From positions 1 through 20,643 of the IMG/VR virus record IMGVR_UViG_3300044675_004084: a DNA stretch of 20,643 nucleotides. One strand, 5' to 3'. The stretch is from a virus. The notes under the pieces were generated by a model. The model was not told the DNA's origin. It ran no database searches and saw only the letters and a program-made list of their open reading frames with translations. Below, piece by piece: positions 5,456 to 19,909 of this stretch; position 1 is the first letter of the stretch; each line of letters opens with the position of its first letter. The position numbers were made by a program, and so were the translations under genes.

Positions 5456-8443
5456 ATGGAACCTAAAGACTTTTTAAGTGCCGCTCTAGGCACTGACGGG
5501 TACTATTGTGTAGTAGGGATAAAAGATAAAAAAAGGGTAGTACCCAAATTTTGTTTGTCTATTGATGAAGTACATGAGACTGCATCAGCATTTGACTCCG
5601 AGGGTTTCGATACTTTTGTAGCTCTTGCTACCTTTGTCACTAACGAGAGCCGCAAAGCCGACAACGTACTGGGAATAAAAACACTATTCCTTGATATCGA
5701 TTGTGGGGAAGGGAAACCTTACGCAACCCAGCGTGAAGGGTGGGCGGCTGTGCAGGCGTTAAGGGTGAAGTACGGGTTGCCGGAATGCTCCGTGGTAGTA
5801 AACTCGGGGCGCGGGCTGCATGTGTATTGGATACTGGATGCCACGTATACACGGGAGCAATGGCTACCTGTGGCGGAACATCTTAAAGCCACCTGCATGG
5901 AAGCGGGGCTGCACATCGATCCTGCGGTTACTGCGGACGCGGCTAGGGTTTTGCGGGTTCCGAATACGCACAACTATAAAGGCAACGTCCCCAAGTTAGC
6001 TAAAATCATTAATGCCAATCCGACACCCGTGTCTTTGAGCGATTTTGCCAGCAAGCTTCCTGCGGTATCGATACCAGTTCTCCCCCTTGCTACAGCGAGG
6101 GAGTACACAGAAGCGGACGCGAAAGACATGGCGCGGGCGCTGGGGGACAAAAAGTATATAAAGAAGTTTTCCAAACTACTCAAAGCAACTGCGGTAGGTA
6201 AAGGGTGCGCCCAGATACATAGGGCGATAATGACCCCTGACGAGTTGTCGTACCCCGACTGGCTCCACGTATTGTCTATTGCCAAGTTCTGTGACGATGA
6301 CGGGGCGCAAGCGATTCACCTTGTGTCACAGGGGTACAGTAACTACAGCGCGGAGGAAACGGAAAAGATAGCTGCCTCTATTGATACCCCACACCTGTGT
6401 TCCACGTTTGAAAGGGATAACCCCGCTGGATGTGAAGGCTGTCCACACAAACTGGCAGGCACAATACGCTCACCCATAAAGCTGTGCATGGAAGTGCGTA
6501 CGTCTGAAGAGGAAGTCGTGGAAGTTAAAGTTCCTGTACCCAAGAATAATTGGGATGAGGAAGAGGCAGAGCACTACGCACAGCAAGAAGACGAGGATTG
6601 CGAGGACGGTGAGGGTGACCCTAACGCCCCCCAGCCACCTCCGGAACCTACTCTACCCGCACCGTTTAAAACAGTATCCATACAGATACCAAAATACCCA
6701 TTTCCATACGAGAGGGGTGCAACGGGCGGGGTGTACGTACGCATAAAACATCCGGACGGTACGGAGGAGCAGAAGGAGATATACAAACGAGATTTATATG
6801 TAACTAAACGGTTGTTAGATCCTATCGAAGGCCCCGCATTTGAGTTTAAGCACCACACTACCCGAGAGGGGGTGCAGACGTTTGTTATTTCTATGAACAA
6901 AATAACGTCAAAGGAGGAATTTCGTAAGGTTATGGGGATGCACGATATCTTTGTACTTGCTAAACAGGCGGATGCACTTATGACTTACATTGGTAGGTGG
7001 ATAGAGACCCTAAAAGACTCGCAGGACATCATAAATGTACACACCCAGTTTGGGTGGACGGAAGATAGAAATTCCTTTGTGTTGGGAGAGCGGGAGATAT
7101 TTGCAGACCGTGTCACTATAAATCCTCCCAGCGTTCGTACTGCACAGTACTTCCCCTTTTTCCACAAGAAAGGCACGTTAGAGGGATGGAAAAGGGTAAC
7201 CGGCTACTACAACCGAGAGGGGTTTGAAGAACACCAGTACATGTTCGCTATAGCGTTCGGCTCCCCCCTGATGATATTCATCCCTAACATAGCAGGGTCT
7301 ATATACCATTTGATGAGTTCCGATTCTGGGTATGGAAAAACTACAGGTATGAACGGAGGGGCGTCGGTCTGGGGTAACTATAAGAAGTTGGTGCTCAAGG
7401 GAAAGGACACCGGCAACTCAGCGTGGAACCGTGCTGAGATATGGAAAAACCTACCGTTGTATATCGACGAGATCACTAACTACAAACCCGCGGATGCTAG
7501 CGAGTTTACCTATGCGGTAAGTGATGGGGAACAAAAGAACAGGATGTCCAACACCGGACAAAACGCGGAGCGTTACCGTGGGGCGGAATGGGCTTTTATC
7601 GTAGGAACTACAGGCAACACCAGCCTAGCGGACATTGTTTCTCAACATAGGGCGCTGGCTAAAGGGGAAATTGGGCGCATGTTAGAAGGCACGGTGATTA
7701 AAACTTTGAAAACTACAGAGGACGCGATGAAGGCGAATATATTGAATGAAGACTTGTCGAACAACTACGGACATGCGGGGGAAGTGTTTATACAACACGT
7801 ACTCAACCACATGGTAGAGGTAGAAAAACTTGTACTCGCTACTAGGGACAAGCTGATGGTATCCGCGGGTTTGGAAGCGCAACACCGCTTCTGGGTTGCT
7901 CAAACAGCTACAACTTTTGCGGCGTGCATCGTTACAAACCAATTGGGGTTAACTAACTGGGACTTACAGAGGTTGTACCGGTGGATAGTAAGGAAACTTA
8001 AAAAGGCGAGAGAAGATATGAAAGACATGGTTATAGACATTGAGGATTTGGTAGGGCAATACCTGAGCGATAACCCCCGCGGTATACTGCGTTTGAAGAG
8101 TACTGACAGCGCGAAAACGAAAGACGCAGAACTTGAGAAGCTGATTTTGCCGGATGCTACGCCTATGTTTAGATGGGTGGCACGGCACGAGTACGATGCC
8201 AACCGGTTGTTCCTGCTACCTACTCCATTTAAAGAGTGGTGTATTAAACGCGGACATCACTATGCATCCATACGCGGCCTGATCAAAAGCGAGATGAATG
8301 GCAAGTTCCACAAGGTACGCTTGGGTAGAGGCACTAAGTTGGACTTGGGGGCTATGCACACCATAGAACTTACATGGAACCAGTCCAAACATGAATCAGT
8401 ACAGTCGAGTTTAGCGGAAGATGACGAGGTTAATGGTAACTGA
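5456..8443 (+). CDS. Primase-helicase: AEP-type primase fused to DUF927-like helicase
   Basis: 995-residue bifunctional replication protein. The N-terminal part carries archaeo-eukaryotic primase signatures: D80-x-D82 in FLDIDCG, SGRGLH (117-122) with H122, and D155...R167-V-P in DPAVTADAARVLRVPNTHN. A helical PriCT-like segment (about 262-305, with PDWLHVLSIAKF) comes next. Then there is a Cys cluster C315-x10-C326-x2-C329 with C344 as a possible fourth ligand, which may bind zinc. A long acidic/proline linker (about 350-405) leads into an ATPase region with Walker A GYGKTT (625-630) and Walker B YIDE (669-672), followed by a DUF927-like SDGEQKNRMS segment (689-698). The C-terminal ~200 residues are not recognised. 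It would make primers and unwind DNA for the family A polymerase. A short GGGA (5447-5450) precedes ATG 5456, so translation initiation may be modest. Confidence 0.88.
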   Translation: MEPKDFLSAALGTDGYYCVVGIKDKKRVVPKFCLSIDEVHETASAFDSEGFDTFVALATFVTNESRKADNVLGIKTLFLDIDCGEGKPYATQREGWAAVQALRVKYGLPECSVVVNSGRGLHVYWILDATYTREQWLPVAEHLKATCMEAGLHIDPAVTADAARVLRVPNTHNYKGNVPKLAKIINANPTPVSLSDFASKLPAVSIPVLPLATAREYTEADAKDMARALGDKKYIKKFSKLLKATAVGKGCAQIHRAIMTPDELSYPDWLHVLSIAKFCDDDGAQAIHLVSQGYSNYSAEETEKIAASIDTPHLCSTFERDNPAGCEGCPHKLAGTIRSPIKLCMEVRTSEEEVVEVKVPVPKNNWDEEEAEHYAQQEDEDCEDGEGDPNAPQPPPEPTLPAPFKTVSIQIPKYPFPYERGATGGVYVRIKHPDGTEEQKEIYKRDLYVTKRLLDPIEGPAFEFKHHTTREGVQTFVISMNKITSKEEFRKVMGMHDIFVLAKQADALMTYIGRWIETLKDSQDIINVHTQFGWTEDRNSFVLGEREIFADRVTINPPSVRTAQYFPFFHKKGTLEGWKRVTGYYNREGFEEHQYMFAIAFGSPLMIFIPNIAGSIYHLMSSDSGYGKTTGMNGGASVWGNYKKLVLKGKDTGNSAWNRAEIWKNLPLYIDEITNYKPADASEFTYAVSDGEQKNRMSNTGQNAERYRGAEWAFIVGTTGNTSLADIVSQHRALAKGEIGRMLEGTVIKTLKTTEDAMKANILNEDLSNNYGHAGEVFIQHVLNHMVEVEKLVLATRDKLMVSAGLEAQHRFWVAQTATTFAACIVTNQLGLTNWDLQRLYRWIVRKLKKAREDMKDMVIDIEDLVGQYLSDNPRGILRLKSTDSAKTKDAELEKLILPDATPMFRWVARHEYDANRLFLLPTPFKEWCIKRGHHYASIRGLIKSEMNGKFHKVRLGRGTKLDLGAMHTIELTWNQSKHESVQSSLAEDDEVNGN

Positions 8444-8642
8444 CATATCCCCTGACGGGGTGCGTGTTGTCATAGACTGGAGCAAGTTTGTCCCCGGGGC
8501 TTCAGTGTTTATACCATGTATAAACACCGCAAAAGCCCTAGAGCATTTCGTAGAAGCGGGGGGCGTACGTAAAAGCGATATAACACACCGAATACGTGTT
8601 GAAGATGGCAAGTACGGTATTCGAATTTGGAGGCTAAAGTAA
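8433..8642 (+). CDS. Small conserved phage protein, unknown function
   Basis: 69 residues if started at ATG 8433. An in-frame ATG at 8421 would give 73, but GGAAG abuts it with no spacing, while GAGGT (8426-8430) sits just before 8433. The protein has IDWSKFVPGASVFIPCINTAKA in its first half and a basic second half (SDITHRIRVEDGKYGIRIWRLK), with no transmembrane segment. Short proteins of this look, with 'W..F..GASVF(I/V)PCINT', recur beside phage primase genes. The function is not known to me. The 5' end overlaps the primase-helicase gene by 11 bases in another frame, and the gene is the last before the terminator. It could be a small accessory or DNA-binding factor, but nothing in the sequence proves it. 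Confidence 0.72.
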   Translation: MVTDISPDGVRVVIDWSKFVPGASVFIPCINTAKALEHFVEAGGVRKSDITHRIRVEDGKYGIRIWRLK

Positions 8643-8686
8643 TTGTGGTACTATAGCCCCGCATCATTCTCTATCAGAGAGAGTTA

Positions 8687-8710
8687 GCCCCCGCAAGGGG
8701 GCATTTTTTT
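8687..8710 (+). terminator. Intrinsic terminator with GNRA loop at the convergent junction
   Basis: A perfect 6-bp stem GCCCCC (8687-8692) / GGGGGC (8697-8702) closes a GCAA tetraloop and is followed by ATTTTTTT (8703-8710). It ends the rightward replication transcript. On the minus strand the sequence after the same hairpin is not T-rich, so it should act mainly in the rightward direction. A weak 5-bp hairpin TCTCT-ATC-AGAGA (8668-8680) lies just upstream. Confidence 0.9.
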
Positions 8711-11700
8711 ACCAGTCCATCCAACTAATCCCTTCCTCAAACTCTCTGTTTGATTCCAACATTTCAAGTGCCGTTTTCCTATCCACAGGCGCTCCACCTG
8801 TAATTGCCGCCATCTCCGTACGTGTTTGTCTAGCCCTGATAGAGCGCAGTAGCGTGTCCACTCCTATGGGGAATGCCGGATAGTCCGCATTAAACGCTTG
8901 CGCTTCTTGCCACGCTTGCGTCAACAGCCCTGAGTGTTCACCCTCTCCGGAAACGGCATACACGAGCTTATCGATTATGCGGTTCCTACGCTCTCGCCTA
9001 CCCAAATCTTTACGGATATTAAGCGATAGCTTGTCTCTGGCTGAGCGCGTGGATATTGGGGCAAACCCCAAGGACTGTCTAAGGATGTCCCCTGCTGGCA
9101 GCGCCCCAGATATTATAGGATCTAGTCGTCCGGTCTCGTACCCTTCGGTAGCAAACCGATACCCTTTTACAAGGTTGGATAACGCTGTCGGTAGAATGGC
9201 TTCCACCGCACGGTCGTTGTTTTTCGGGTCATCGTCAAACAGCCTGAGTCCACCCTCCAAACTACGCACGGTCACACCAAACGCGGGGCCAAGTGATGCC
9301 TCTACTGCATACTGATATTCATTGTCTGGTTTGTAGTTGCCGCGGTCGCGTATCATCAAGTTGGTCAAGGACACACGATCCGTAATATCTACCCCAAACA
9401 TATTTGCGATTAACCCGTAGTACTTGTCCTCCCCTATCGTCTTAGCGATAAGAGTGTTGAAGTCGTCTTCGTCGTCGTCCAAGAACAAGTTGGCAATTGA
9501 CGCTACTACCCCGTACATTGGGATGCCCTTCACCCCCACAAGCACGCCACCCACTGCAGCCGTGTAGAAGAACGTGTTTCGCAGCGCCCTTGCCTCTTCG
9601 AGTTCAGCGGGGGTGCGGGCTTTACCTGTCAGGTCTTTAAAAATACTGTTCAACATACTGAAGTGGGTGTACAGCATCTGCCCCGGTACTTTTTTAAACT
9701 GCCACACCAAGCTGCCTACAGATGTTTGTGCAATACGCGGAGCGGCGGTGATAAGTGCAGAGCTGTTTACATACAACATGGTATCAATAGCGGTTTCTGC
9801 GGCTTTATTCCCGTACTGTGCGATATCCGGATCGGTTAACTTCCCAAACTTCTTACCCGTAAGTTTTTCCATCTCCAGTATGTAGGTGCTGATTGCACTA
9901 ACCTGCCGTATCCCACGTTCAGAGTGGGCAAACAAGAACCCGCCTATATAGTTAAGCTTATTAATCCACGGGGCTGTCGGACTATCCAGCTCAGACATCT
10001 CTGCGGCTTGTGTGCGGGTATCAAATCCACGTTCCTTAAATATAGAGGTCAGAGGTTCTAGTTTTTTATATCCTGCCTGACGCTTAGGATCGGTTGAAAA
10101 ATCATTAGTTATTGAGAACCCACCACGCTCCCGTATGGGTGCGCTAGGGCTTAACGGTTTTCCGTCAGCATCCAAATTCGTTATACCTTCTCTGGACACT
10201 TTCCCAAAAGACCCCACATACAACTTAGCTGCCATTGCCGAGGCAATAGTTGCTTTACCCGCTCCGTATCTACCAGCCAACGTGTTTTGCAGGACAAGGG
10301 GTAGAATGGCAGTGTTTACCGCTACTGAGCTTATGTTGCCCGCCAGAGTCATAGTGAACGTACCCGAGCGTAACATCCTAGCTACGTTGGAAATATACGG
10401 GTTTTTAGAGAACTGCAGGTAGCTGGGCAAAGACCCAAACACTATCATGGCCTCTGTCTCTTTTTTGGTTCCGGCAATACTAGTAGCAGCGTCCTTGTAG
10501 AACACTTCCGAGTCCGGCAACTTGTCCCGCTCATCCCGTACTTTCTTCGATACTTGCTCCAACTCCACCATATAGGAAAGGTTGGAAAGGCTCGTTATAA
10601 ACTGAGGGCCACGTTGTTGAAGCGCGGTAACTGCGTCCCCTTCAAAGAATGCAACCCCTTTACGTACTTGACGTGATTGAACAATAGCCTGTTCAGGTAG
10701 AGAACGCAGGATGATATTGGCTAAGAACTCATTGAGCTGCCTTTTACCTTCGGGGTTTACTTCTTTGCCATCCTTATCTTTAAGCTCAAGGTCTTTTATC
10801 TTTTTTTGCAAGTCGGTAAGGAAAGGTATGGGGATACTTCCATCGTACGCACGTTGCTCAATCTCGGATAAAGGCCGCTCACGTATGCTATCTCTGTCTA
10901 CTTCGGTCATATTACGCAATTTCTCAATTGCTTTGCCCCGCTCCAACGCAGAGTTAAAGGAGCCAGTACCGTATACCAACTGCCCGTTGTCGTCCCGGTA
11001 GGTAAACTCCACCCAGAACTCTCCACCACGCGTTAACGGGAAGTAGGGTTTGATTGACCCAGTTAGTATTCTTCGCAACAACATGGTGTGCTTTACAGAA
11101 GTTTTAATTTCAGGATCAATATCCATCCGGTCTATGTTGGCTTCTTCTGCAGTTATTATTTTATCGTTTATGTCTGCGTAAAAGTCCCGCAGTTTTGTAT
11201 ACGCCCCACGTTGGGTAGGGGTAAGAGAGGCAAACATTTGCCGGACTTTTGCATCGTCTGCTTTACGTATATCCGTAGGCTCCGTAGCTTTAATGCCATC
11301 CACATCCCCGAGTATAGGGGAGGGGCGGTTTGCCGCTTTGGCACTCGCTATTTGAGCACTTAACTGCGCTTTCCTAGCCTCCATTTGCTCTTTGGTATTA
11401 AACTTTTCTTCCTTTTGTGTAGCTTTGTTTGTACTTGGGTTGATTACCCCGTACCGCAACCAGAACTTGTTAACGATATCAGGATCAGCAGTTGGGTCTG
11501 CACCATTTAGAGTTGAGAAAGACACAAGCTCGTTATAGGTTTTTCGCCCTTCGACATCCCCTTTGAACGCTTTATTTACGTCGTTGAGTAGCCCGCTGTA
11601 CGTCTTCATATTCTGAGTGCGTACCCCGTCCATCTTATACATAATTTTTTCAAATTCTTTAGCTGAAGGAACAACGTCTTTTAGGATGTTGGTAATACCT

Positions 11701-14700
11701 TCTAACCCCAACCCATTCAAAAGTGTTGCCCGTACCTTTTCGGAACTCCTAGCAATTACGGCAACATAGTCTTTAAATTTGGAAGGTGGAGTGTCCCGTA
11801 TAAAGTTTTTACCCCCACTCAAGAGACTATTTAGCGCTTTTTCAGGATCGTCTTTAGCTATCGCTGAAGCAATCGTTGTGGCGTTACGGGTGTTTGGCGC
11901 GGTGGCAAGTATAGTGTTGATGAGGTTTAGGGCCTCTGTGTTTGCTGTATCGGTGGTGTAGTTCATACCAAACAGCCGTCCTACCGCCTCCCAGAATCTA
12001 TCCCAGCCGGTTATCTTGTCTCCGCTTATACGGTACGCTGCTAGTTTTGTTTGGAACTCAGAGTTGGAGAACGCTTCAGCAACAAATTCCTCCAAAGACT
12101 TCATGGCATATTCGTCGGGCATTTTGTCTTTGAGGTTGTTGTATAGCTGGGTAAGTCGCTGCGTTGTTGGATGGCTCGGGTTCTTCAATACTTTTATGGT
12201 CGCCGCATGGGTGGCTTCGTGCAGTACTGTGTGTGTACTAAGCGGCATACTCGTATTTATAACAAGCGTGTCCGTGGCAGCATCGTAAATACCAGCCAAC
12301 ATGTTTCCCTTAGCGTCGGTAAGGGTAGCATTCATTGAAACTTTAAGGCCCGCTATTGCCTGCTTTAAGCTATTCGCGGCTCTACGAACGCTAGCGTTAA
12401 GGGTTGTTTTGGAAATACTATCAAGCGCCCCGAATGCGTTCCCGTTCTTTAATTGTTCAGTGACACTTGGGTCAGCGTTGACCATCGTTGCAGCAACGGC
12501 GTCTGCCCTTAAGGCGTAGGTTACAACCCCATCGTACGCCGTTATGGCGTCGTTTAATTGTTCCCGCAACGCCGATTTATCAACAGCTGCCAAAACTTCT
12601 ACATCAGGAGTGGCGCTAAAATCGATTATAGCGTTAACCGCCTCCATTGTTAAACCGTCGTTTCGATCAGTATCTTTAGCCGCGGGGGCTACATAGTCCG
12701 CAACTACTTTTGCATTTGCTGCAGCAGTTTTTTGCAGGTCTCCCCGATTTTTTTGTAGCCTAGCTTCTTCCTTAAGGTCCGCCCTTTTTATATCCCTTCT
12801 AGTGCGGTACTGCTCCTCTTGCCGAGCGATATCTATCATAGTGTCCAATATGGGGGTGTATTCTGGGGCGTTAGCTCGTACCCACTCCCTTGCGCTATTG
12901 GCGCGTTTTAGATCATTTACTCTGGCTGGGACTATGCTATTTAGGGGATTGTTTATTTCAAACGCAATAGTTTTAAGCAACATGTCTGGGGTATCTGTAG
13001 TCCCCAAGTAATAAAACATAGCCCCTTCGGGGGTGTACTTATTATTTTTGTCTAGTTTAAACTTGCCCGCTTTACCAAACGCTTCAGGTGCTTTGTCTTT
13101 AAGCTCCCCCTTGAGGCTCGGCATAGGCGGCGGTTTAGGAACCATACGCATAGACGCGGAGGATACTAACGCATTAACCTTGTCGGATACCTCGGGGGTT
13201 TGCTCTTTGACCACTTTGTTGTTTGCAAAATCGGTCAACTCTTTTTGTACAACTGGATCAGAAACATCTTTACCTAGCACACGACGGTAAACAGGCGCAG
13301 TATCTGGGATACCCGCTGCGTCAAGAACTTCTTTGGTTGCTATAACTGTTGGGGCGGAGTCCTCAGCTTCGCGAAGGTCAGCTTCGGTCAACGGGGTGAA
13401 CGCAGCAACCCCGGGTGTGGCCTGCCCTGATACTTCAACCCCCTCCTCAAATGGACTAGGCTCCGCAAACATGTCTAATTGTCTTTGCGATTGGGGGTCC
13501 TCCGCCTCAACGTCGCGCAGGTCAGCTTCTGTCAACGGAGTGAACGCAGCAACACTGGGTGCGGTCTGCCCCGATACTTCAACCCCTCTCTCAAATGGAC
13601 TAACCCTAGCTGCCGATGCCCGTTCAATAGCGGGAATCTCAAGTTGCCCTTCCAGCCCTCTACCGGTACGGTCTAAGCGTTCTCTGTTAAGCCGAGCCTT
13701 TTCCGCACGTTCTTGTTCCTGCGGAGTGAGTTCTGGAGGTGTAGTAGAGGGGGTGGTTTTAAGTTCCGATATCAAGCTTTCTAGCTCTGACACTCCCGCA
13801 CGCTGTTCCGCTTCTTGCCTAGCTTGTATTGCCGCTGCAGTTTCGGCCTGCTCAGATTCGCGGGTAGTAATAGCTTGCTGCACACCAACAGCCCGATTAA
13901 TCGTAGCAAGCTCAGACTCCGTAGGAGTTGTATTGGTAAAACCTTGGCGGCGAAGCTCCGCACTAAACGCCCTTGCTAAATTAGGAGCGTCAAGAATACC
14001 TCGGGTTTCAATGATGGGCAGCAGTACCTGTCTGCGCTTTTCTTCTGATTCGGTTTGACGTCCTGTCTCCAACCGCTCCCCGAGTAGAAATGTTTCTTCT
14101 CTTATACGGGCTTGCTCGTCTCGTTGCCGCTGGACTTCTTGAGCGGCCAACTGGGCATCTTCTTCCGCTTGTAACTGTGCCAGCTCGTCAGTGTCCAACA
14201 GGTCTTGTATTTGACGAGTCTCGTCAATGTCGAGCATGTCCAGCTGAGTACCTTGAGGGACATCTCGTTGTCCGGGTGCTTCCTTCGCTATTATGTCTTC
14301 TATCTCTTCGCGGGAACGCCCTTCAGCGGCCAACTGATTTCGTCTATTGGTTTCAGGTTTAAAAACGTCGCTTCTAAGCAAAGAAGATATTCGGCTTACC
14401 GTTTGAGGGGCAAGCTGTTGAGTTTTAGAGTTGTTTGTGTAGGCGGTTAAAATCCTACGGGCTTCAGCCTGCTGTTCGGGTATGGCGAGGTCGAGACCAA
14501 ATAGTTTTTCTGCAGTGGCTTTGTTTAAATTTAAACCGAGCGCCTGTAAATCATCGGCGGAAAGAACGGAAGCTACATCCTGTCTACCAAGCAAATCCCC
14601 TTCTTGTTGAGGCGGTGGGGGAGGAGGAGGCGCAGCAATGCCCGGAGCCGTATCGGGGGATACTTCAACCCCCGTACTAAACGGATCGGCTGGCGGGGGA

Positions 14701-15575
14701 GGAGCACCTGCAGCACCACGGGACTTTACCCCCAAAGCCATTTCGGTAAACAGCTGTAACAGACCACCGACACTACCACCGATCTGTGCGGACTCACCTA
14801 CCCCCGCAAAGGTTTCGGTTTCGGGGTCGTAAACACCTTGGGAAATTAAGTTTTGCATAACTTCGGTGGCGGCTTCTTGTGCAGCTTCTTGTGCAGCTGC
14901 TTCCCCGACACGTCCAAGCCCTCCCGCTCGTACACGGGACAGTCTTGCTCTAACACTATCATCCAAGGCTTTGGCTATAGTTTCTGTGTTTGGCCCCAAC
15001 GCCCTTCTGGCACGGGATACAATAAGTGCGGGAGCCACCATTTCGAAAGCGCCCGGGATTATACCCAGACCAGCGGCAGTACTAATTTCGTCTTCTGTTG
15101 CCCCTGCAGCCACTGCGCGTTGCGCCGCTTCGCCTGAACCCGAGGCTATACCCAACCCTGTACCAGCAACAACGCCGGGAACTCCGAATGGTGCAGCAAG
15201 AATAAAGGGTGCGGTCGATCCCAAACCCCGTACCACGTCAAGGTACGTGCCCTCATACCCGGCATCAGGAGCCAAGAACTCCTGTACCCCACCACCTATT
15301 TCTGCAATTCTCTGCCGTGCAGCTTGCTCCTGACGCTCCGGCAATAAGAAGGACGCGCCAGTTAACCCTGCTTCTACCGTGCCTGCAGCTCCGGCCCCAA
15401 GGGCTTTAAATGTTTCGGGGACATACCCAAACAACGAGGGTTCCTCGGGGGTGGGTGCTTGATACTGCCCGGATTGTATTTGCTTAATTGTATCCGCAAG
15501 CCTTTTGGCCGCAGCAGTATCCCCCGCAGCGTGCGCGTTACGAAAAGCAGATACTAACTGTTCAAAACTAGCCAT
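8709..15575 (-). CDS. Giant virion/ejected-type protein with zincin motif and LPD38-like C-terminus
   Basis: 2288 residues, the largest gene here. The N-terminus (FRNAHAAGDTAAAKRLADTI, 11-30) matches the start of many large phage injected proteins. Hydrophobic, glycine-rich stretches follow (about 121-146, 166-187). A Pro/Gln/Glu-rich disordered region (about 280-800) contains repeats. A metallopeptidase motif HEATH (1119-1123) with E1163 or E1167 in LEEFVAEAF as third zinc ligand suggests a zincin. KPYFPLTR (1509-1516) begins a further large-polyvalent-protein-like segment. Hydrophobic helices occur at 1743-1764 and 2002-2032. The C-terminus (DRGNY..., GAFAG-like repeats of small residues, LGFAP) resembles large polyvalent protein domain 38. 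The role is probably an internal virion protein delivered with DNA, with possible proteolysis of host wall or membrane targets. The stop lies inside the T-tract of the opposing terminator. A weak AAGG precedes the start. Confidence 0.82.
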   Translation of the reverse strand: MASFEQLVSAFRNAHAAGDTAAAKRLADTIKQIQSGQYQAPTPEEPSLFGYVPETFKALGAGAAGTVEAGLTGASFLLPERQEQAARQRIAEIGGGVQEFLAPDAGYEGTYLDVVRGLGSTAPFILAAPFGVPGVVAGTGLGIASGSGEAAQRAVAAGATEDEISTAAGLGIIPGAFEMVAPALIVSRARRALGPNTETIAKALDDSVRARLSRVRAGGLGRVGEAAAQEAAQEAATEVMQNLISQGVYDPETETFAGVGESAQIGGSVGGLLQLFTEMALGVKSRGAAGAPPPPADPFSTGVEVSPDTAPGIAAPPPPPPPQQEGDLLGRQDVASVLSADDLQALGLNLNKATAEKLFGLDLAIPEQQAEARRILTAYTNNSKTQQLAPQTVSRISSLLRSDVFKPETNRRNQLAAEGRSREEIEDIIAKEAPGQRDVPQGTQLDMLDIDETRQIQDLLDTDELAQLQAEEDAQLAAQEVQRQRDEQARIREETFLLGERLETGRQTESEEKRRQVLLPIIETRGILDAPNLARAFSAELRRQGFTNTTPTESELATINRAVGVQQAITTRESEQAETAAAIQARQEAEQRAGVSELESLISELKTTPSTTPPELTPQEQERAEKARLNRERLDRTGRGLEGQLEIPAIERASAARVSPFERGVEVSGQTAPSVAAFTPLTEADLRDVEAEDPQSQRQLDMFAEPSPFEEGVEVSGQATPGVAAFTPLTEADLREAEDSAPTVIATKEVLDAAGIPDTAPVYRRVLGKDVSDPVVQKELTDFANNKVVKEQTPEVSDKVNALVSSASMRMVPKPPPMPSLKGELKDKAPEAFGKAGKFKLDKNNKYTPEGAMFYYLGTTDTPDMLLKTIAFEINNPLNSIVPARVNDLKRANSAREWVRANAPEYTPILDTMIDIARQEEQYRTRRDIKRADLKEEARLQKNRGDLQKTAAANAKVVADYVAPAAKDTDRNDGLTMEAVNAIIDFSATPDVEVLAAVDKSALREQLNDAITAYDGVVTYALRADAVAATMVNADPSVTEQLKNGNAFGALDSISKTTLNASVRRAANSLKQAIAGLKVSMNATLTDAKGNMLAGIYDAATDTLVINTSMPLSTHTVLHEATHAATIKVLKNPSHPTTQRLTQLYNNLKDKMPDEYAMKSLEEFVAEAFSNSEFQTKLAAYRISGDKITGWDRFWEAVGRLFGMNYTTDTANTEALNLINTILATAPNTRNATTIASAIAKDDPEKALNSLLSGGKNFIRDTPPSKFKDYVAVIARSSEKVRATLLNGLGLEGITNILKDVVPSAKEFEKIMYKMDGVRTQNMKTYSGLLNDVNKAFKGDVEGRKTYNELVSFSTLNGADPTADPDIVNKFWLRYGVINPSTNKATQKEEKFNTKEQMEARKAQLSAQIASAKAANRPSPILGDVDGIKATEPTDIRKADDAKVRQMFASLTPTQRGAYTKLRDFYADINDKIITAEEANIDRMDIDPEIKTSVKHTMLLRRILTGSIKPYFPLTRGGEFWVEFTYRDDNGQLVYGTGSFNSALERGKAIEKLRNMTEVDRDSIRERPLSEIEQRAYDGSIPIPFLTDLQKKIKDLELKDKDGKEVNPEGKRQLNEFLANIILRSLPEQAIVQSRQVRKGVAFFEGDAVTALQQRGPQFITSLSNLSYMVELEQVSKKVRDERDKLPDSEVFYKDAATSIAGTKKETEAMIVFGSLPSYLQFSKNPYISNVARMLRSGTFTMTLAGNISSVAVNTAILPLVLQNTLAGRYGAGKATIASAMAAKLYVGSFGKVSREGITNLDADGKPLSPSAPIRERGGFSITNDFSTDPKRQAGYKKLEPLTSIFKERGFDTRTQAAEMSELDSPTAPWINKLNYIGGFLFAHSERGIRQVSAISTYILEMEKLTGKKFGKLTDPDIAQYGNKAAETAIDTMLYVNSSALITAAPRIAQTSVGSLVWQFKKVPGQMLYTHFSMLNSIFKDLTGKARTPAELEEARALRNTFFYTAAVGGVLVGVKGIPMYGVVASIANLFLDDDEDDFNTLIAKTIGEDKYYGLIANMFGVDITDRVSLTNLMIRDRGNYKPDNEYQYAVEASLGPAFGVTVRSLEGGLRLFDDDPKNNDRAVEAILPTALSNLVKGYRFATEGYETGRLDPIISGALPAGDILRQSLGFAPISTRSARDKLSLNIRKDLGRRERRNRIIDKLVYAVSGEGEHSGLLTQAWQEAQAFNADYPAFPIGVDTLLRSIRARQTRTEMAAITGGAPVDRKTALEMLESNREFEEGISWMDW
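13362..13601 (-). repeat. In-frame 48-residue tandem duplication in the giant protein
   Basis: Two copies of the pattern SPFE(R/E)GVEVSGQ followed by P-(S/G)-VAAFTPLTEADLR lie at residues 659-690 (13506-13601) and 707-738 (13362-13457), offset by 144 bases. The first 32 residues of each unit are nearly identical; the spacer (AEDPQSQRQLDMFAEP) is seen once between them. A shorter diverged copy, DPFSTGVEVS then TAPGIAA, is at residues 297-315 (14631-14687). All lie in the disordered linker region. Confidence 0.9.
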
Positions 15576-15592: not shown

Positions 15593-17770
15593 TTAGTTAG
15601 AGTATAGGTCGAGATCCCTTTGAATGTCCGGGGAAATTATAAAATTATTATTATTGTTAGCTCCCCCAGTTTCCATCACTTCGCCTGAAAGGCCCAACAA
15701 CTCAGCACTTCTAGTGCGTAACTGATTTATCTCATTTTCTTGTAGTCGTATTGCCTTATCAATTGCTTCTAGCGCCGTGGGGTTCTCACTTAGCAGAGGA
15801 CGCCTTGAAGCTAAATCCGCAAGGGCGGTGGTAGCATCTTGTATCCTGTTAGCGACAGTAGCGGATAATTGCGTTTTGTTTTGCTCGGATAAAAGGTTCT
15901 GTCTTCCACGTTCAAGTGCAATTTCAAGTTGGGTTTTTACACTATCAAATGCCCTTTGCTCTCTTCCTAAGATTTGTGCCGCTTCTATTTCGTTTGCGCT
16001 ATTAAATTGGGCTATAACTGACTGATACACTTGTGCTCTTTGTGTGTTTGAGGCCCCAAACGCCCCTTCTCCAGCTGCAAGCGCACCTTGCCTAGCGGCC
16101 CTTTCTTGCTCAATCAATCCCGTAGCCAGATCAAACTGACTTCCCGCACGCGTACGAGCATCGGCACGAACTGCGTCCTCTACTTCCCTTACTCCTCTGG
16201 ATGCAGCAGGACCGCCTTGAGCAATTAGATTGGAACTCGCAAGCCCGCCTAACAACGCACTAATCTCACGGCTACGTTGTTCTTCAGGAGAGTATAAGGG
16301 AGCGTCCAGCGCAGCGGATCTGGAACGTATTAAAGCTTTTAACTCTTCCATTGATGGGTCTGTAGCAGCTCTGTACCTAGCTTCTGCAGCCGCACGCGCA
16401 GTTTCTGGGGCGTTCGGGTCCATCATTGCGCTTTCATATTCTTGATACGGACGAGAAGGGGGTGTAGAAACATTAGTACCACCGGAAGGAGATAGTGATG
16501 CTATTAGGGCGTCAAGATCTGAAACTGAAACAGCCTCCCCGCCGCTTGGACTAACTGGCAGAGAAGTTTGACTCGCTGGTGTGGAAGTTTGGGCGCCCCC
16601 ATCCAACGCGCTAAGGTTAAGGGTGCTATCTTTCGGGGGTGTGGTTTCGTTAGTGAGGACAGTGGGAGCAGGCTCGCCCTGCGCTGAAGATCGACCCGCA
16701 TAAATAGGGCTTCCCTCTGCGTTGAAGCCAACGATATTAGACCCGCCCGGCACTCCGTTAAATATGCTTGCTAAGCCTCGAGCCATGGCAGGTGGAGCCC
16801 CAACTACGACGTCCTTCACGCCCGACAGCACCCCCATTAGATTTTCACCCTGCCCGGTACGGTCTCCCATACTGTAGGAGGTGGACGGTACAGACGTTTG
16901 CCTACCTTCTTCTCGCATTGCACGTCGTTCCGCAGCGGAAGGGCCTGAGTAAGGTCCCGGTACCTCAGCCTTATCTAACTCCCGTAGATTTTCTACCAGC
17001 TTTTGTATGCGTTCGCGACGTGCAATTTCAGCCTGCATTTCTTCCCGATTAGTTGGTAGGTTTTCACGTGGAAGCGTTCCAACGCGCCCCGGCAACAGAT
17101 AATCCGTTGGCTGGGCGTATGCATCCGTAGTTCTGCTTTGAGTGTCCCCACCATCAGAGGGAGTAGTTTGCGACTGGTCTGAATTTCTTCTGCGTTCCGC
17201 TTGCTCTTGCATACGTTCAAGCCGTGCAATTTCAGACAGTAATTCTTCTCGAGTAGTTGGTAAATTTGAAGGCGGTAGCATCCCAACGCGCCCCGGCAAC
17301 AAATAATCCGTTGGCTGCGCATATACGCCTTCAACACCGCCCCCATTGTCAAACCCAACAATCCCACCTTCAGCCATACCCGCCATGTTCGGTGCAGGTA
17401 GCTGAGGTAACCCGCCGCTCATCGCTTGCTGCATCTGTTGAGCCTGCATGTTGCCGCCTTGACGCTGAATACCCGGGGACAGCCGTGAGGCAAGTTCTGC
17501 AATACCCTGCTCGGCTGCAAGTTTAGTGCGCTCAGCAACGGTAGGGGGCATAGGCTGAGGCTGCGTCGCGGCCATCATCTGGTCAGCAGCTTGCATCGCT
17601 TGCAGTGCATCTTTGTACTTCAACATCGCCAATGTGCGCGGGTCGAGTATCTGCTTCTCTGCATCCGACGAAACAACGTCAACAGCGGCGTTAAGCCGTG
17701 GGTTATTCATTTGCGGAGCCTGCTGCTGACCTTGCGGCATCAGCGCACCTAGACCTTGAGATTGCATCAT
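15593..17770 (-). CDS. Repeat-containing probable virion protein with GGIV motif
   Basis: 725 residues, low complexity, rich in Gln, Ala, Ser, Pro and Met. The N-terminal ~130 residues are helical and Gln/Met-rich. GMAEGGIVGFDNGGG (131-145) is a short glycine motif that recurs in virion proteins of marine phages. Two copies of an AQPTDYLLPGRVG unit follow (150-195 and 218-263). The middle is Ser/Thr/Pro-rich and probably disordered. From about 470 the protein is alanine-rich and helical, with coiled-coil-like stretches (FDSVKTQLEIALERGRQN, LEAIDKAIRLQENEINQL). No catalytic motif is seen. It is probably a structural or internal virion component delivered with its neighbours. AGGAG (17777-17781) precedes tandem ATGs at 17770 and 17767. 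The gene lies 17 bases from the giant protein gene and is likely co-transcribed with it. Confidence 0.72.
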   Translation of the reverse strand: MMQSQGLGALMPQGQQQAPQMNNPRLNAAVDVVSSDAEKQILDPRTLAMLKYKDALQAMQAADQMMAATQPQPMPPTVAERTKLAAEQGIAELASRLSPGIQRQGGNMQAQQMQQAMSGGLPQLPAPNMAGMAEGGIVGFDNGGGVEGVYAQPTDYLLPGRVGMLPPSNLPTTREELLSEIARLERMQEQAERRRNSDQSQTTPSDGGDTQSRTTDAYAQPTDYLLPGRVGTLPRENLPTNREEMQAEIARRERIQKLVENLRELDKAEVPGPYSGPSAAERRAMREEGRQTSVPSTSYSMGDRTGQGENLMGVLSGVKDVVVGAPPAMARGLASIFNGVPGGSNIVGFNAEGSPIYAGRSSAQGEPAPTVLTNETTPPKDSTLNLSALDGGAQTSTPASQTSLPVSPSGGEAVSVSDLDALIASLSPSGGTNVSTPPSRPYQEYESAMMDPNAPETARAAAEARYRAATDPSMEELKALIRSRSAALDAPLYSPEEQRSREISALLGGLASSNLIAQGGPAASRGVREVEDAVRADARTRAGSQFDLATGLIEQERAARQGALAAGEGAFGASNTQRAQVYQSVIAQFNSANEIEAAQILGREQRAFDSVKTQLEIALERGRQNLLSEQNKTQLSATVANRIQDATTALADLASRRPLLSENPTALEAIDKAIRLQENEINQLRTRSAELLGLSGEVMETGGANNNNNFIISPDIQRDLDLYSN
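16982..17323 (-). repeat. In-frame duplication around AQPTDYLLPGRVG
   Basis: Copy 1 spans residues 150-195 (17186-17323) and copy 2 residues 218-263 (16982-17119), offset by 68 residues (204 bases). Each reads YAQPTDYLLPGRVG, then LP, NLPT, REE and an EIAR(L/R)ER(M/I)Q helix. The DNA over the LPGRVG part is almost identical between copies, so the duplication is probably recent. A Ser/Thr/Asp-rich spacer separates them. Confidence 0.9.
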
Positions 17771-17791: not shown

Positions 17792-18784
17792 TTACGGCCC
17801 TATACCGGCTAGTTTGTCCCGTTCCTGCTTCTGGCGAGCTGCTTCTAGTATTAACGCCTGTTGCGGATTAGCCGTTTGATTAGTTCCGCCGCCGAGAATG
17901 CCCGCTTTTCTAAGTAATGCTAAGATGGAATTACCAGCGTCAAGGGTGCCCGCCACAGTCTGCAGACCACTAGGCTCATAAGTTTCGTATGTCTGGGTTT
18001 CAAGTGGTAGCCCATCCAGCAACGATTGCAGGAACTGAATCTGCTTCTGCGGGTAATCTCGCTCTTCTGTGAACTGCGCCAAGTCCGCACTTATACCCTG
18101 CTGCTCAATACCACGCTGCTCGGCACCCGCCGTACGCTGTTTGTCCAAGATGTCAAAGCCCAACCGGCTGGCTTGCTCGGCAGCTTGTCTACGACGGTCT
18201 TCCTCAGTGTTGAACTGATTCTGCGCTTGCGTAAACGCTTGGTTGTAACCTTGCCCGGTGATCCCCGACATACGATCTAACAACCCACGTTGCAACTCAG
18301 CTTCAGCTACACCCTGACGTGATCCGCCGTACGCCCCGGCTCTACCGTACTGGCTCTGCAGTGCTTGTTGTTGAATCTCACTTTGCCTGCGTGCAGCCGC
18401 ATACTGCGGGTCTAAGACCGACTGCAAATACGGGGTCATGTAGTTCTGTACGACGTTGTTTGACGCAGGTGTAAAGGTAGGTGTTGCCCCGCCAGCAAGT
18501 GCCGCTGCAGAAGGCTGCGTGTACGCAGAGCCTGTAAACGACATCGGGTTGTACGCCATGGAAGAAGCGCTTGGAGTTTGCAACGCCCCCAGCCCCTGAA
18601 ATGCCTGCGTTTGCAATGCAGATGGCCCAGCAGTCAACGGTCCTTCATAGGCTGTGTACGGCAGGTTTGATGCCGCTGCGCCTCGACCCAACATCTGGGT
18701 AACATAAGGACCCGCCCAACTGGACAGCGAGGATTCTTCCGCTCGTTGTGCTCCTGCCGGTACTATGCTGTCTGTAACTGCCAT
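17792..18784 (-). CDS. Conserved virion-type protein (YMTPYLQ/GAYGGSRQ family)
   Basis: 330 residues. It has YTAYEGPLTAGPSALQ (43-58), NYMTPYLQSVLDPQ (114-127) and a helical Gln/Ala-rich segment with RAGAYGGSRQGVAEAEL (148-164). A second charged helical part follows (TEEDRRRQAAEQASRLGFDILDKQRTAG), and then a flexible, alanine- and glycine-rich C-terminus. This order of motifs is familiar from structural gene blocks of marine phages, where such proteins are taken as tail or internal virion components. The exact place in the particle is unknown. The Shine-Dalgarno GAGGTGA (18789-18795) includes the TGA stop of the gene before it. The gap to the next gene is 21 bases. Confidence 0.75.
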   Translation of the reverse strand: MAVTDSIVPAGAQRAEESSLSSWAGPYVTQMLGRGAAASNLPYTAYEGPLTAGPSALQTQAFQGLGALQTPSASSMAYNPMSFTGSAYTQPSAAALAGGATPTFTPASNNVVQNYMTPYLQSVLDPQYAAARRQSEIQQQALQSQYGRAGAYGGSRQGVAEAELQRGLLDRMSGITGQGYNQAFTQAQNQFNTEEDRRRQAAEQASRLGFDILDKQRTAGAEQRGIEQQGISADLAQFTEERDYPQKQIQFLQSLLDGLPLETQTYETYEPSGLQTVAGTLDAGNSILALLRKAGILGGGTNQTANPQQALILEAARQKQERDKLAGIGP

Positions 18785-18793
18785 TTCGTCACC

Positions 18794-19909
18794 TCACGCG
18801 GGTGTAAATTTATTGGGGGCTATTTTACGGCCTTGCTCTTTGGTGCCTGTGCGAGCCTGACGAACCCGATCCATCATGGAGTATAACACTTTTGCACCTG
18901 CATCCGAATTGCCATTACCCAGCCCACTAACAACGTCAGCAGGTACAACAAACTCACCGTCACTGAGCGCAGCGGGTTGTGTGTCTTCAATAGTTGCTGG
19001 GATTTCATCGGCCATACCGTCAGTGGAACCACCCAAGTAGTAACCACGACTGGCGGGCACCGCACCGCCTTGTGCAAATTCTTCCATGTTTGTATCGTCC
19101 ATGGTTAGTGGAATCCCCCCACCACCGGTATTTGTTCCGCCACCGCCACTGACATTTGTTCCGCCACTGACGTTTGTTCCGCTACCGTCACTGACATTTG
19201 TTCCGCCACTGACGTTTGTTCCGCTACCGCTACCAAATAAATTTTTAAATACTTTTGCGGCATCTTCCGGGGTTAACGCTCCAAACAAACCCTGCGCCGA
19301 TCTATTGGCAACAACGGGTGGGCTAGACGGCGGAACAAAAAGTTGTGAAGGCACAGTAACGGGGCTAATTCTATTAGCGGCCATTGTTTTACCCGTTGGG
19401 GTATAGGTCGTATCGGTAAAGTACCGACGTCCGCCACTGCCCGGTCTACGCTGCCCTATCACAGCAGGTTCTGTTGTTGGCGTACCGTAGCCAAACGCTT
19501 TGTAATCCGCTTCCACTTCCTGCGGAGTAAAGCCCGTCGCTCTTGCAACTTGTGTTGGGGAAACACCGTACTGGTTCATTGCTTTTGCAATTTCGCGGTG
19601 CGCAGCAGCCCCGGGACCGCCGTACTGCCCATAAGTTTTATTAACAAAGTTTGCTACTTCTTTGTCGGGATAGTTTAGGAAAGCATCAGGCGTCAATGCT
19701 CGGGTAATACCGTATTCTGGTATCCCTTCACTGTAACCTACGGGGCGCTGAGTGCCTCCAGTCAGGAACTTACCAATACCGCTGTCGCGGTTAGTAACGC
19801 CATATAACGCAGCCAAACCTGCCCCGGACAAAGCAAGTTTCTTTGGGTCCAGCTTGCCCTCACTGTCAAAAATTAAACCCTTTAAAAAATCTTTAACGGC
19901 ATTGCTCAT
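18794..19909 (-). CDS. Virion-associated protein with C-terminal LSDGEFVVPA module
   Basis: 371 residues. The N-terminal part holds a helical segment (AHREIAKAMNQYGVSPTQVARATGFTPQEV, 103-132) that looks like a small HTH-type or helical repeat unit found in phage tail proteins. Residues about 227-265 are Gly/Thr/Asn/Ser repeats. The C-terminal 95 residues form a recognisable module: FAQGGAVP (278-285), GGSTDGMADEIPATIE, LSDGEFVVPADVVSGLGNG (315-333), then LYSMMDRVRQARTG. This module is widespread at the ends of virion-region proteins of uncultured phages; its role is not known to me. GAGGGTGA (19914-19921) overlaps the previous gene's TGA and lies 4 bases before ATG 19909, which points to coupled translation. 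It is likely structural or assembly-related. Confidence 0.75.
   Translation of the reverse strand: MSNAVKDFLKGLIFDSEGKLDPKKLALSGAGLAALYGVTNRDSGIGKFLTGGTQRPVGYSEGIPEYGITRALTPDAFLNYPDKEVANFVNKTYGQYGGPGAAAHREIAKAMNQYGVSPTQVARATGFTPQEVEADYKAFGYGTPTTEPAVIGQRRPGSGGRRYFTDTTYTPTGKTMAANRISPVTVPSQLFVPPSSPPVVANRSAQGLFGALTPEDAAKVFKNLFGSGSGTNVSGGTNVSDGSGTNVSGGTNVSGGGGTNTGGGGIPLTMDDTNMEEFAQGGAVPASRGYYLGGSTDGMADEIPATIEDTQPAALSDGEFVVPADVVSGLGNGNSDAGAKVLYSMMDRVRQARTGTKEQGRKIAPNKFTPA
19148..19231 (-). repeat. 42-base tandem repeat (two copies) encoding TNVSGG/TNVSDGSG
   Basis: Two adjacent copies of a 42-base unit (starting at 19148 and 19190) encode the 14-residue pattern TNVSGGTNVS plus DGSG or GGGG. They form a flexible linker between the N-terminal part and the C-terminal module of the 371-residue protein. 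A diverged GGGGTNTGGGG lies at the low-coordinate side. Confidence 0.9.

What the first reader, a model, noticed from the sequence alone, without database searches (positions are those of the whole stretch)
11900..12300. Zinc metallopeptidase motif buried in a 2288-residue phage protein
Seen: HEATH at residues 1119-1123 and, 39-43 residues on, LEEFVAEAF with two candidate glutamates. Known: HExxH with a downstream Glu is the zincin (gluzincin) arrangement. Inference: a protease delivered with the DNA could cut host envelope proteins or process virion proteins during maturation.
Basis: partly seen in the sequence, partly recalled or inferred. Interest (0 to 1): 0.55.

Follow-up and report, generated by a model that had tools for sequence, protein, structure and literature searches.

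The report
Zincin domain in giant phage protein
A giant phage protein, probably carried inside the virus particle, contains a well-preserved zinc-protease-like domain of a kind already described in such proteins, more likely used to cut the protein itself than the bacterial envelope.

Summary
P0001 (window 8709-15575, minus strand, 2288 aa) has one HExxH, HEATH 1119-1123, with Y1156, E1163 and E1167 downstream. Relatives fetched by C-terminal motifs only keep it in 65 of 65 usable ORFs (of 79 loci); in 58 distinct domain sequences H, E, H, Y1156 and E1167 are invariant and position 1163 is E (47) or D (11). AlphaFold2 gives a confident zincin-like domain (pLDDT 88.1); its top structural match is the HExxH domain of N4 virion RNA polymerase (Z 8.0). 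The family profile matches two solved phage internal-virion/ejection proteins, a phage gp10 and, more weakly, lethal factor. The gene ends a small-medium-giant cassette like T7 gp14-15-16 and carries LPD39 and PLxRFG regions: a new member of the known polyvalent-protein zincins (Iyer 2017). Self-processing is the likeliest role; envelope cleavage is unsupported; activity is untested. Side result: the linker upstream carries QxxLF motifs far above chance in 51 of 86 relatives (94 versus about 8), resembling beta-clamp binding motifs; function unknown.

The parts
8709..15575 (-). P0001, 2288-aa giant protein
   Evidence: ORF and translation
14706..15575 (-). N-terminal Gly/Ala-rich region, residues 1-290
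   Evidence: sequence; a membrane-active role is inference by analogy with the N4 vRNAP N-terminal domain
12477..14705 (-). Low-complexity, Pro/Gln/Glu-rich linker, residues 291-1033, fast evolving
   Evidence: sequence; dN 0.257 against L002 versus 0.05 in the zincin domain
14232..14246 (-). QLDML (444-448), QxxLF-type motif with Leu in place of Phe
13467..13481 (-). QLDMF (699-703), QxxLF-type motif
11817..12476 (-). Zincin-like metallopeptidase domain, residues 1034-1253 as modelled
   Evidence: AlphaFold2 pLDDT 88.1, pTM 0.82; fold matches; profile matches
12207..12221 (-). HEATH, predicted zinc-binding and catalytic helix, residues 1119-1123
12108..12110 (-). Y1156, candidate catalytic Tyr
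   Evidence: 58 of 58 distinct sequences; pairs with the Tyr of lethal factor that counts to 728 in the profile alignment
12087..12089 (-). E1163, candidate third zinc ligand
   Evidence: E 47, D 11 of 58; E in all 9 rows of A1
12075..12077 (-). E1167, candidate second-shell acid
   Evidence: 58 of 58 but W, H and G in LKD16, Vibrio 1.205.O and Axy23
11103..11750 (-). LPD39 region, residues 1276-1491
   Evidence: Pfam PF18858 E 1.9e-7, 31.4 bits, cut-off 27
8811..11048 (-). PLxRFG 'tail-700' region, residues 1510-2255
   Evidence: NCBIfam NF032893 E 7.9e-60, 203.1 bits, cut-off 100
15593..17770 (-). P0002, 725 aa, medium member of the cassette
   Evidence: position; no family above its cut-off
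17792..18784 (-). P0003, 330 aa, small member, ejection-protein-like
   Evidence: phrog_4287 'DNA ejection protein' E 1.5e-10
5456..8443 (+). P0005, convergent primase/helicase-like gene next to the giant gene (landmark)
   Evidence: phrog_8841, DUF927; a convergent ORF of at least 850 aa is next downstream in 108 of 113 testable giants (its identity was not tested there)

Best explanation
P0001 is the giant, last-encoded ejection (internal virion) protein of a probable short-tailed phage, of the polyvalent type. Residues 1034-1253 are a zincin-like (gluzincin, lethal-factor/N4-C1-like) metallopeptidase domain with a complete set of active-site residues: H1119, H1123 and E1163 bind zinc, E1120 is the general base, Y1156 stabilises the transition state, E1167 is second shell. 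Best-supported mechanism: the protein is packaged in the capsid, ejected ahead of or with the DNA, and the zincin cuts its own chain (or a partner ejection protein), probably in the unstructured linker upstream, separating the N-terminal part from the conserved C-terminal core. Shown: the sequence motif, its conservation, a predicted fold and its matches, gene position. Inferred: virion location, metal binding, the residue roles, any proteolysis, the substrate. Confidence is about 0.93 for an intact zincin-type domain, about 0.85 for an ejection/polyvalent protein, and about 0.45 for self- or partner-processing; the figure below is for the whole statement.
For: HExxH kept in 65 of 65 usable ORFs of 79 loci selected without it, with Y1156, E/D1163 and E1167; confident model with HExxH and E1163/E1167 on two helices; VIA ranks 1-19 are N4 gp50 2124-2366 (Z 8.0, 165 aligned, 3.7 A), lethal factor, Certhrax and ArdC; profile A3 hits 9sfn 'internal virion protein' 3e-20, 8vb2 'tetrameric ejection protein' 1.1e-15, 23sg gp10 2e-11 and lethal factor 1.1e-4. 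The domain goes with the C-terminal core in 65 of 65. The giants of LASTA, POI1126 and PEp14 each have exactly one HExxH, 487, 374 and 724 residues before the point that matches P0001 residue 1620, 1510 and 1850; in P0001 the distances are 501, 391 and 731 (reckoned). Cassette small-medium-giant with a large convergent ORF; P0003 ejection-like. Constraint on the domain: dN 0.05, dS 0.615 against L002. Self-processing was proposed for this domain class by Iyer et al. 2017 (passages).
Against: No cleavage data. The N4 vRNAP, which has the homologous domain, is packaged unprocessed (Iyer, passages) and the authors of its structure report no evidence of degradation (passages). The ArdC metalloprotease mutant keeps its function (passages). 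Foldseek alone gave no match at E 0.001 or better; Z 8 lies within what models without a clear match can reach (note). Ejection from this phage's own virion is not shown. The T7 core-protein resemblance of the C-terminal region is weak (Z 5.0) and absent by profile.
Confidence: 0.5

Rival explanations
1. The zincin is an injected effector that cuts a host protein (restriction enzyme, defence or envelope protein) after ejection.
For: Zincins act as effectors in other conflict systems and Iyer et al. allow this role (passages); the profile matches lethal factor, an effector protease; related giants are annotated 'DarB-like antirestriction'.
Against: The domain goes with the C-terminal core in 65 of 65 ORFs and is about as constrained as the core, whereas a host-target effector would be expected to come and go. 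No target evidence. 'DarB-like' is an annotation only; PADLOC gave no hit.
Confidence: 0.25
2. The domain is a structural or metal-stabilised part of the ejection complex with no needed proteolysis (a pseudo-enzyme in practice).
For: N4 vRNAP unprocessed; ArdC activity dispensable; the solved chains 9sfn and 8vb2 keep HExxH and the PhiM1 ejectosome paper has no occurrence of protease, peptidase or HExxH in its main text (find); the Tyr is missing in LKD16, Vibrio 1.205.O and N4.
Against: H1119, E1120, H1123 and Y1156 are invariant in this group (58 of 58), which a purely structural role would not require.
Confidence: 0.22
3. The HExxH domain is a metal enzyme of another chemistry, e.g. like the alpha-ketoglutarate-dependent HExxH oxygenases.
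For: A structure of that kind appears at VIA rank 48, Z 3.5; the N4 authors name radical-SAM HExxH proteins beside zincins (passages).
Against: Much weaker than the zincin rows; the conserved Tyr/Glu pattern aligns with lethal factor.
Confidence: 0.03

Closest known systems
Zincin-like MPTase of polyvalent proteins (Iyer et al. 2017, PMC5512222, passages)
   Same: HExxH helix plus Glu on a later helix, three-stranded sheet, giant multidomain phage protein with LPD and PLxRFG regions
   Different: Which of their 12 clades it belongs to was not tested; Pfam, NCBIfam, PHROGs and PADLOC named no other enzyme domain in P0001
phiKMV-type gp37 internal virion protein (LKD16 gp37; PDB 9sfn, assigned to this type by its 1337-aa length and sequence, the tool gives no phage name)
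   Same: Same domain by profile (3e-20); largest of a small-medium-large internal virion cassette
   Different: 1337 aa; lacks the Tyr and E1167 equivalents; its annotated lysozyme motif was not found in P0001
PhiM1 gp48 tetrameric ejection protein (PDB 8vb2)
   Same: HExxH...YGx5E kept
   Different: 1263 aa; Gln at the E1167 position
N4 virion RNA polymerase gp50, C1 domain
   Same: Top structural match (Z 8.0); HELVH and a later NEF
   Different: Carries an RNA polymerase; no Tyr at the -7 position and Trp at the E1167 position; C2 not detectably related to residues 1250-2288 by profile
Anthrax lethal factor catalytic domain (peptidase family M34, recalled)
   Same: Profile match 1.1e-4; GlY, HExxH and YGx5EFxAEAF aligned
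   Different: A bacterial toxin domain, distant; structural match only Z 4.6-5.1 in the first 19 rows
Giants of LASTA, POI1126 and PEp14 ('DarB-like')
   Same: C-terminal region homologous (LASTA 100%, 4.5e-75; all three by tblastn), one HExxH at a closely similar distance upstream
   Different: 4433-4914 aa; their HExxH regions are matched weakly (POI1126) or not convincingly (LASTA, PEp14) by the A3 profile

Membership tests
Zincin-like MPTase of polyvalent proteins | HExxH on the active-site helix | tested here: met
   Model helix 81-97 holds HExxH at 86-90; 58 of 58
Zincin-like MPTase of polyvalent proteins | Conserved Glu on the second C-terminal helix | tested here: met
   E1163 E 47 / D 11 of 58, on helix 128-137
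Zincin-like MPTase of polyvalent proteins | Three-stranded sheet with flanking helices | tested here: met
   Strands 45-49, 62-65, 70-74 and helices in order; predicted, not solved; an extra helix 103-116 lies between the two active-site helices
Zincin-like MPTase of polyvalent proteins | Fused to polyvalent-associated regions in a giant phage protein | tested here: met
   LPD39, PLxRFG tail-700
Zincin-like MPTase of polyvalent proteins | Placement in one of the 12 published clades | not tested
   The published alignments were not on hand
Gluzincin, lethal-factor-like active site | HExxH, Tyr seven residues before the ligand Glu, acid four after it | tested here: met
   Profile-to-sequence alignment; residue roles in lethal factor are recalled; the role of such a Tyr in ArdC was read in passages
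Gluzincin, lethal-factor-like active site | Same fold | tested here: inconclusive
   Lethal factor rows Z 4.6-5.1, rmsd 6.4-7.1 A among ranks 2-19; Foldseek E 0.5
Gluzincin, lethal-factor-like active site | Zinc binding and peptidase activity | not testable with these tools
   needs purified protein
Metzincin (HExxHxxGxxH, recalled) | Third ligand in the extended motif | tested here: not met
   Sequence after H1123 is AATIKV; no Gly or His at the required places
Podophage gp16-position ejection protein | Last and largest of a small-medium-large internal virion cassette | tested here: met
   P0003 330 aa, P0002 725 aa, P0001 2288 aa; the two upstream ORFs of relatives have medians 302 and 623 aa in 50 testable loci; 36 of 50 (550-850 aa) and 37 of 50 (220-400 aa) fit
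Podophage gp16-position ejection protein | Homology to T7 gp16 | tested here: inconclusive
   VIA, T7 core chain 9jyy_I: Z 5.0, 237 aligned, 5.5 A; hhalign with T7 gp16 probability 0.3%
Podophage gp16-position ejection protein | Presence in the virion | not testable with these tools
   Only by analogy: JC1 gp69 (4515 aa, DarB-like) found in virions with 51 unique peptides (PMC9144972 passages); its homology to P0001 was not tested
Beta sliding clamp binding motif | Q-aliphatic-x-[LM]-[FL] | tested here: met
   QLDMF and QLDML in the window; definition from PMC11139829 passages. Most copies in relatives do not meet it: position 2 is G in 41 and Q in 12 of 90 tabulated
Beta sliding clamp binding motif | Binds DnaN | not testable with these tools
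   needs a binding assay

The most novel reading that the evidence does not exclude
The ejected giant is a three-part device: arrays of short QG[DE][LM]F-type motifs in its disordered linker dock it on the host beta sliding clamp (DnaN) at the replication fork, while the adjacent zincin frees the linker part from the C-terminal core once inside the cell. A phage would then seize or block host replication with a virion protein before any phage gene is expressed. A not excluded alternative of similar novelty: the motifs are the zincin's own repeated cleavage sites.
Probability: 0.15. Interest if true: 0.7.

Novelty: new member of a known kind. Interest (0 to 1): 0.36.

Why it matters
In the sampled group of environmental phages the zincin is a fixed part of the giant protein's core, with a complete set of active-site residues, so the open question of what these domains cut can be asked in a cultured relative by one active-site mutation and virion mass spectrometry. 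The linker motif arrays are a separate, readily testable lead on how an ejected protein might contact host replication or be processed.

Tried and rejected
Chance motif: rejected. Metzincin arrangement: rejected on sequence. Conservation in the first set of relatives (A1 scan; tabulated) was not used for H, E, H or T1126, because the scan pattern itself required HE..H and the following T; T1126 indeed varies in the second set (T in 50 of 58). Homology of residues 1250-2288 to N4 C2, LKD16 gp37 or T7 gp16 by hhalign against single sequences: not found (probabilities 0.1, 0.2 and 0.3%); profile search of solved sequences with A6: one irrelevant hit at E 1.6. N4 vRNAP was not listed for the C-terminal model in VIA, which excludes nothing. 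PADLOC: no hit. PHROGs with three medium proteins of relatives (635, 635 and 623 aa): no hit at E 0.01; one of three small ones (L022, 303 aa) hits phrog_4287 at 0.0033, the other two nothing. Cellular genomes: one relative confirmed among 109 pattern stretches. The phage P1 proteome paper was looked at for DdrB processing (passages): it lists DdrB as 108.7 kDa with 59.5% coverage in virions and decides nothing. The full canonical clamp pattern Q[AILMV].[LM][FL] in linkers is only modestly above chance (21 versus mean 9.5, maximum 17); the strong excess lies in the versions ending in F.

Full report
What was reported and whether it is there. The giant ORF, HEATH at 1119-1123 and LEEFVAEAF at 1161-1169 are present as described, with three rather than two Glu in the latter. 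It is the only HExxH in 2288 residues that hold nine histidines; composition predicts 0.0026 such motifs. The window is a whole IMG/VR virus record of 20,643 bases; the DNA polymerase ORF runs off its left end, so it is most likely a genome fragment, and the phage is unnamed.

Is the motif kept by selection? The five rows of A5 come from HExxH-bearing proteins, but the searched region does not include the domain. Of the 79 loci, 65 have at least 400 residues upstream of the match in the same ORF; 14 were dropped as contig-truncated, short or split (six of these still hold a fragment of the domain, and the contig of L125 also gave L040, whose ORF has an HExxH). All 65 have the domain. Among 58 distinct domain sequences H1119, E1120, H1123, Y1156, F1164, E1167, N1171, F1174 and L1178 are invariant, position 1163 is E in 47 and D in 11, while the inner residues of the motif vary (1121: A 26, V 10, S 8 and others). 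Some contigs occur in both sets. Between the window and L002 the domain has dN 0.05 and dS 0.615, the C-terminal region dN 0.035 and dS 0.353, the upstream linker dN 0.257 and dS 1.041.

Fold. With 62 sequences (A3) AlphaFold2 gives residues 1034-1253 mean pLDDT 88.1 and pTM 0.82: N-terminal helices, a three-stranded sheet, a helix carrying HExxH, and a later helix carrying E1163 and E1167. Foldseek against the PDB gave nothing at E 0.001 or better, with lethal factor on top at 0.5. The VIA second look put the N4 virion RNA polymerase gp50, residues 2124-2366, first (Z 8.0, 165 aligned, 3.7 A), then lethal factor entries (Z 4.6-5.1, 6.4-7.1 A), Certhrax (the aligned range, 20-232, is its N-terminal part) and ArdC (Z 4.7, 48 residues, 2.3 A); ranks 1 to 19 are all from these proteins, and rank 20 is not. 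Z 8 alone is not decisive, but N4's matched range is the C1 domain that its authors describe as bearing a conserved HExxH (PMC12633501, passages). No coordinates were available to me, so the His-His-Glu distances were not measured.

Sequence relatives with solved structures. The A3 profile, which contains no phiKMV-type row, finds 9sfn 'internal virion protein' (3e-20), 8vb2 'tetrameric ejection protein (gp48)' (1.1e-15), 23sg 'gp10' (2e-11), lethal factor (1.1e-4) and, weakly, a virion RNA polymerase 11fw (0.013). In the lethal factor alignment HExxH pairs with HExxH and the profile segment seyGltnldEFVAEaf pairs with TSYGRTNEAEFFAEAF; for entry 1j7n the matched range ends at residue 741, so its Tyr counts to 728 and the two Glu to 735 and 739. 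That these are the catalytic Tyr, the zinc ligand and a neighbouring acid is recalled; the role of such a Tyr is described for ArdC (PMC7213743, passages). On this basis E1163 is the ligand candidate, Y1156 the catalytic Tyr candidate and E1167 second shell. The Tyr and the E1167 acid are missing in LKD16 gp37, Vibrio 1.205.O and N4, and Axy23 and PhiM1 gp48 keep the Tyr but not the second acid, so the window's group has the fuller set.

Surroundings. P0001 carries LPD39 at 1276-1491 and the PLxRFG 'tail-700' region at 1510-2255. Upstream on the same strand lie P0002 (725 aa, no family above cut-off) and P0003 (330 aa, phrog_4287 'DNA ejection protein', 1.5e-10). Across 126 distinct giants in the fetched loci, the next downstream ORF is a convergent one of at least 850 aa in 108 of 113 testable cases, and the two ORFs upstream have medians of 623 and 302 aa in 50 testable cases. 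This order of sizes is that of T7 gp14-gp15-gp16 and phiKMV gp35-gp36-gp37. The C-terminal half models at pLDDT 82.7; its best VIA rows include core proteins of phage E1004 (Z 6.0, 250 aligned, 7.0 A, rank 1) and T7 (Z 5.0, 237 aligned, 5.5 A, rank 5) over the same model range, which is suggestive only, and hhalign with T7 gp16, LKD16 gp37 and N4 C2 finds nothing. The giants of LASTA, POI1126 and PEp14, annotated DarB-like, share the C-terminal region (LASTA: 100%, 4.5e-75; all three by tblastn). Each has exactly one HExxH, and its distance to the matched C-terminal point is close to that in P0001: 487 versus 501 (LASTA, point 1620), 374 versus 391 (POI1126, point 1510), 724 versus 731 (PEp14, point 1850), reckoned by hand. 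The A3 profile itself matches POI1126 weakly and the other two not convincingly. A giant of a Bcep22-like phage, JC1 gp69, was found in purified virions with 51 unique peptides (PMC9144972, passages); I did not test its homology to P0001.

How it probably works. The protein is most likely packaged and ejected. The zincin went with the C-terminal core in all 65 testable ORFs, while what lies before it varies: in 5'-closed ORFs the HExxH sits anywhere from residue 415 to 1936. That pattern fits a housekeeping step on the protein itself, such as cutting the linker, better than a host-specific effector. Iyer et al. (PMC5512222, passages) proposed such processing for this domain class and also allowed effector roles. 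Against it stand the unprocessed N4 polymerase and ArdC, whose metalloprotease mutant still works. I commit to self- or partner-processing at about 0.45, host cleavage 0.25, structural role 0.22. Nothing found supports cutting of envelope proteins in particular.

An unexpected feature. In the linkers (residue 251 to 90 before HExxH) of 86 non-redundant relatives, out of 123 with enough linker, the pentamer Q..[LM]F occurs 94 times in 51 proteins; 200 shuffles of the same linkers give a mean of 8.1 and a maximum of 17. Q.[DE][LM]F occurs 74 times against 1.3, and QG[DE][LM]F 39 times against 0.1. Most controls are flat: Q..[LM]Y 5 versus 5.2, Q..[IVA]F 21 versus 21.0, E..[LM]F 12 versus 14.4, reversed F[LM]..Q 1 versus 8.4, the same pentamer in the C-terminal halves 11 versus 20.9, and in 404 other ORFs of the same loci 23 versus 31.4. 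Some are not flat: in linkers Q.[LM]F is 19 versus 8.2, Q...[LM]F 23 versus 8.4, N..[LM]F 9 versus 5.0, and [LM]FG (44 versus 10.6) and [DE][LM]F (109 versus 24.1) are well up, in part because they overlap the motif; without the Q, [^Q].[DE][LM]F is 35 versus 23.4, within the shuffle maximum of 36. Some copies sit at homologous positions, so they are not independent events; up to four occur in one linker. None of eight named phage proteins outside the group has the pentamer. The window has QLDMF at 699 and QLDML at 444; L002, L011/L092, L012/L093 and L095 keep variants at both places, L005/L091 at one, L099 at the later one, and L003 (contig-truncated), L104, L105, L107 and L108 show none. QLDLF-type pentamers are the known beta-clamp binding motif (PMC11139829, passages); most family copies differ from it at position 2. 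Two literature searches (70 and 76 papers, 15 listed each) showed no paper on clamp-binding motifs in ejected virion proteins, judged from titles and abstract openings only. Clamp docking and zincin cleavage sites are both open.

Novelty. A zincin in a giant phage protein is an established theme, so this is a new member of a known kind. The conservation test free of motif selection and the linker motifs are the additions.

Noticed in passing
P0001 linker, window 13467-13481 and 14232-14246; linkers of relatives: QxxLF-type motifs, strongly enriched in linkers (94 copies in 51 of 86 relatives versus about 8 by shuffling), resembling beta-clamp binding motifs; function unknown.
   Followed up: partly
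window 20149-20639: Hexanucleotide repeat GGCGTT, about 82 copies, encoding a (Pro-Thr)n run on the minus strand at the very end of the record; the contig breaks inside it.
   Followed up: no
P0001 residues 297, 659 and 707: Three copies of a [SD]PF..GVEVS linker segment, two of them nearly identical over about 30 residues.
   Followed up: no
window 19130-19230 (P0004): Short Gly-Thr-Asn-Val-Ser tandem repeats in a 371-aa protein of the same cassette.
   Followed up: no
L008, gene 7014-12425 (crAss-like phage cr4_1): Carries a related HExxH domain with an in-frame stop just after the HExxH helix, perhaps stop-codon reassignment (recalled for some crassviruses); the record's note reads exonuclease.
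   Followed up: no
P0001 residue 1115, window 12231-12233: A His one helical turn before HExxH is kept in 55 of 58 relatives, W in 3.
   Followed up: no
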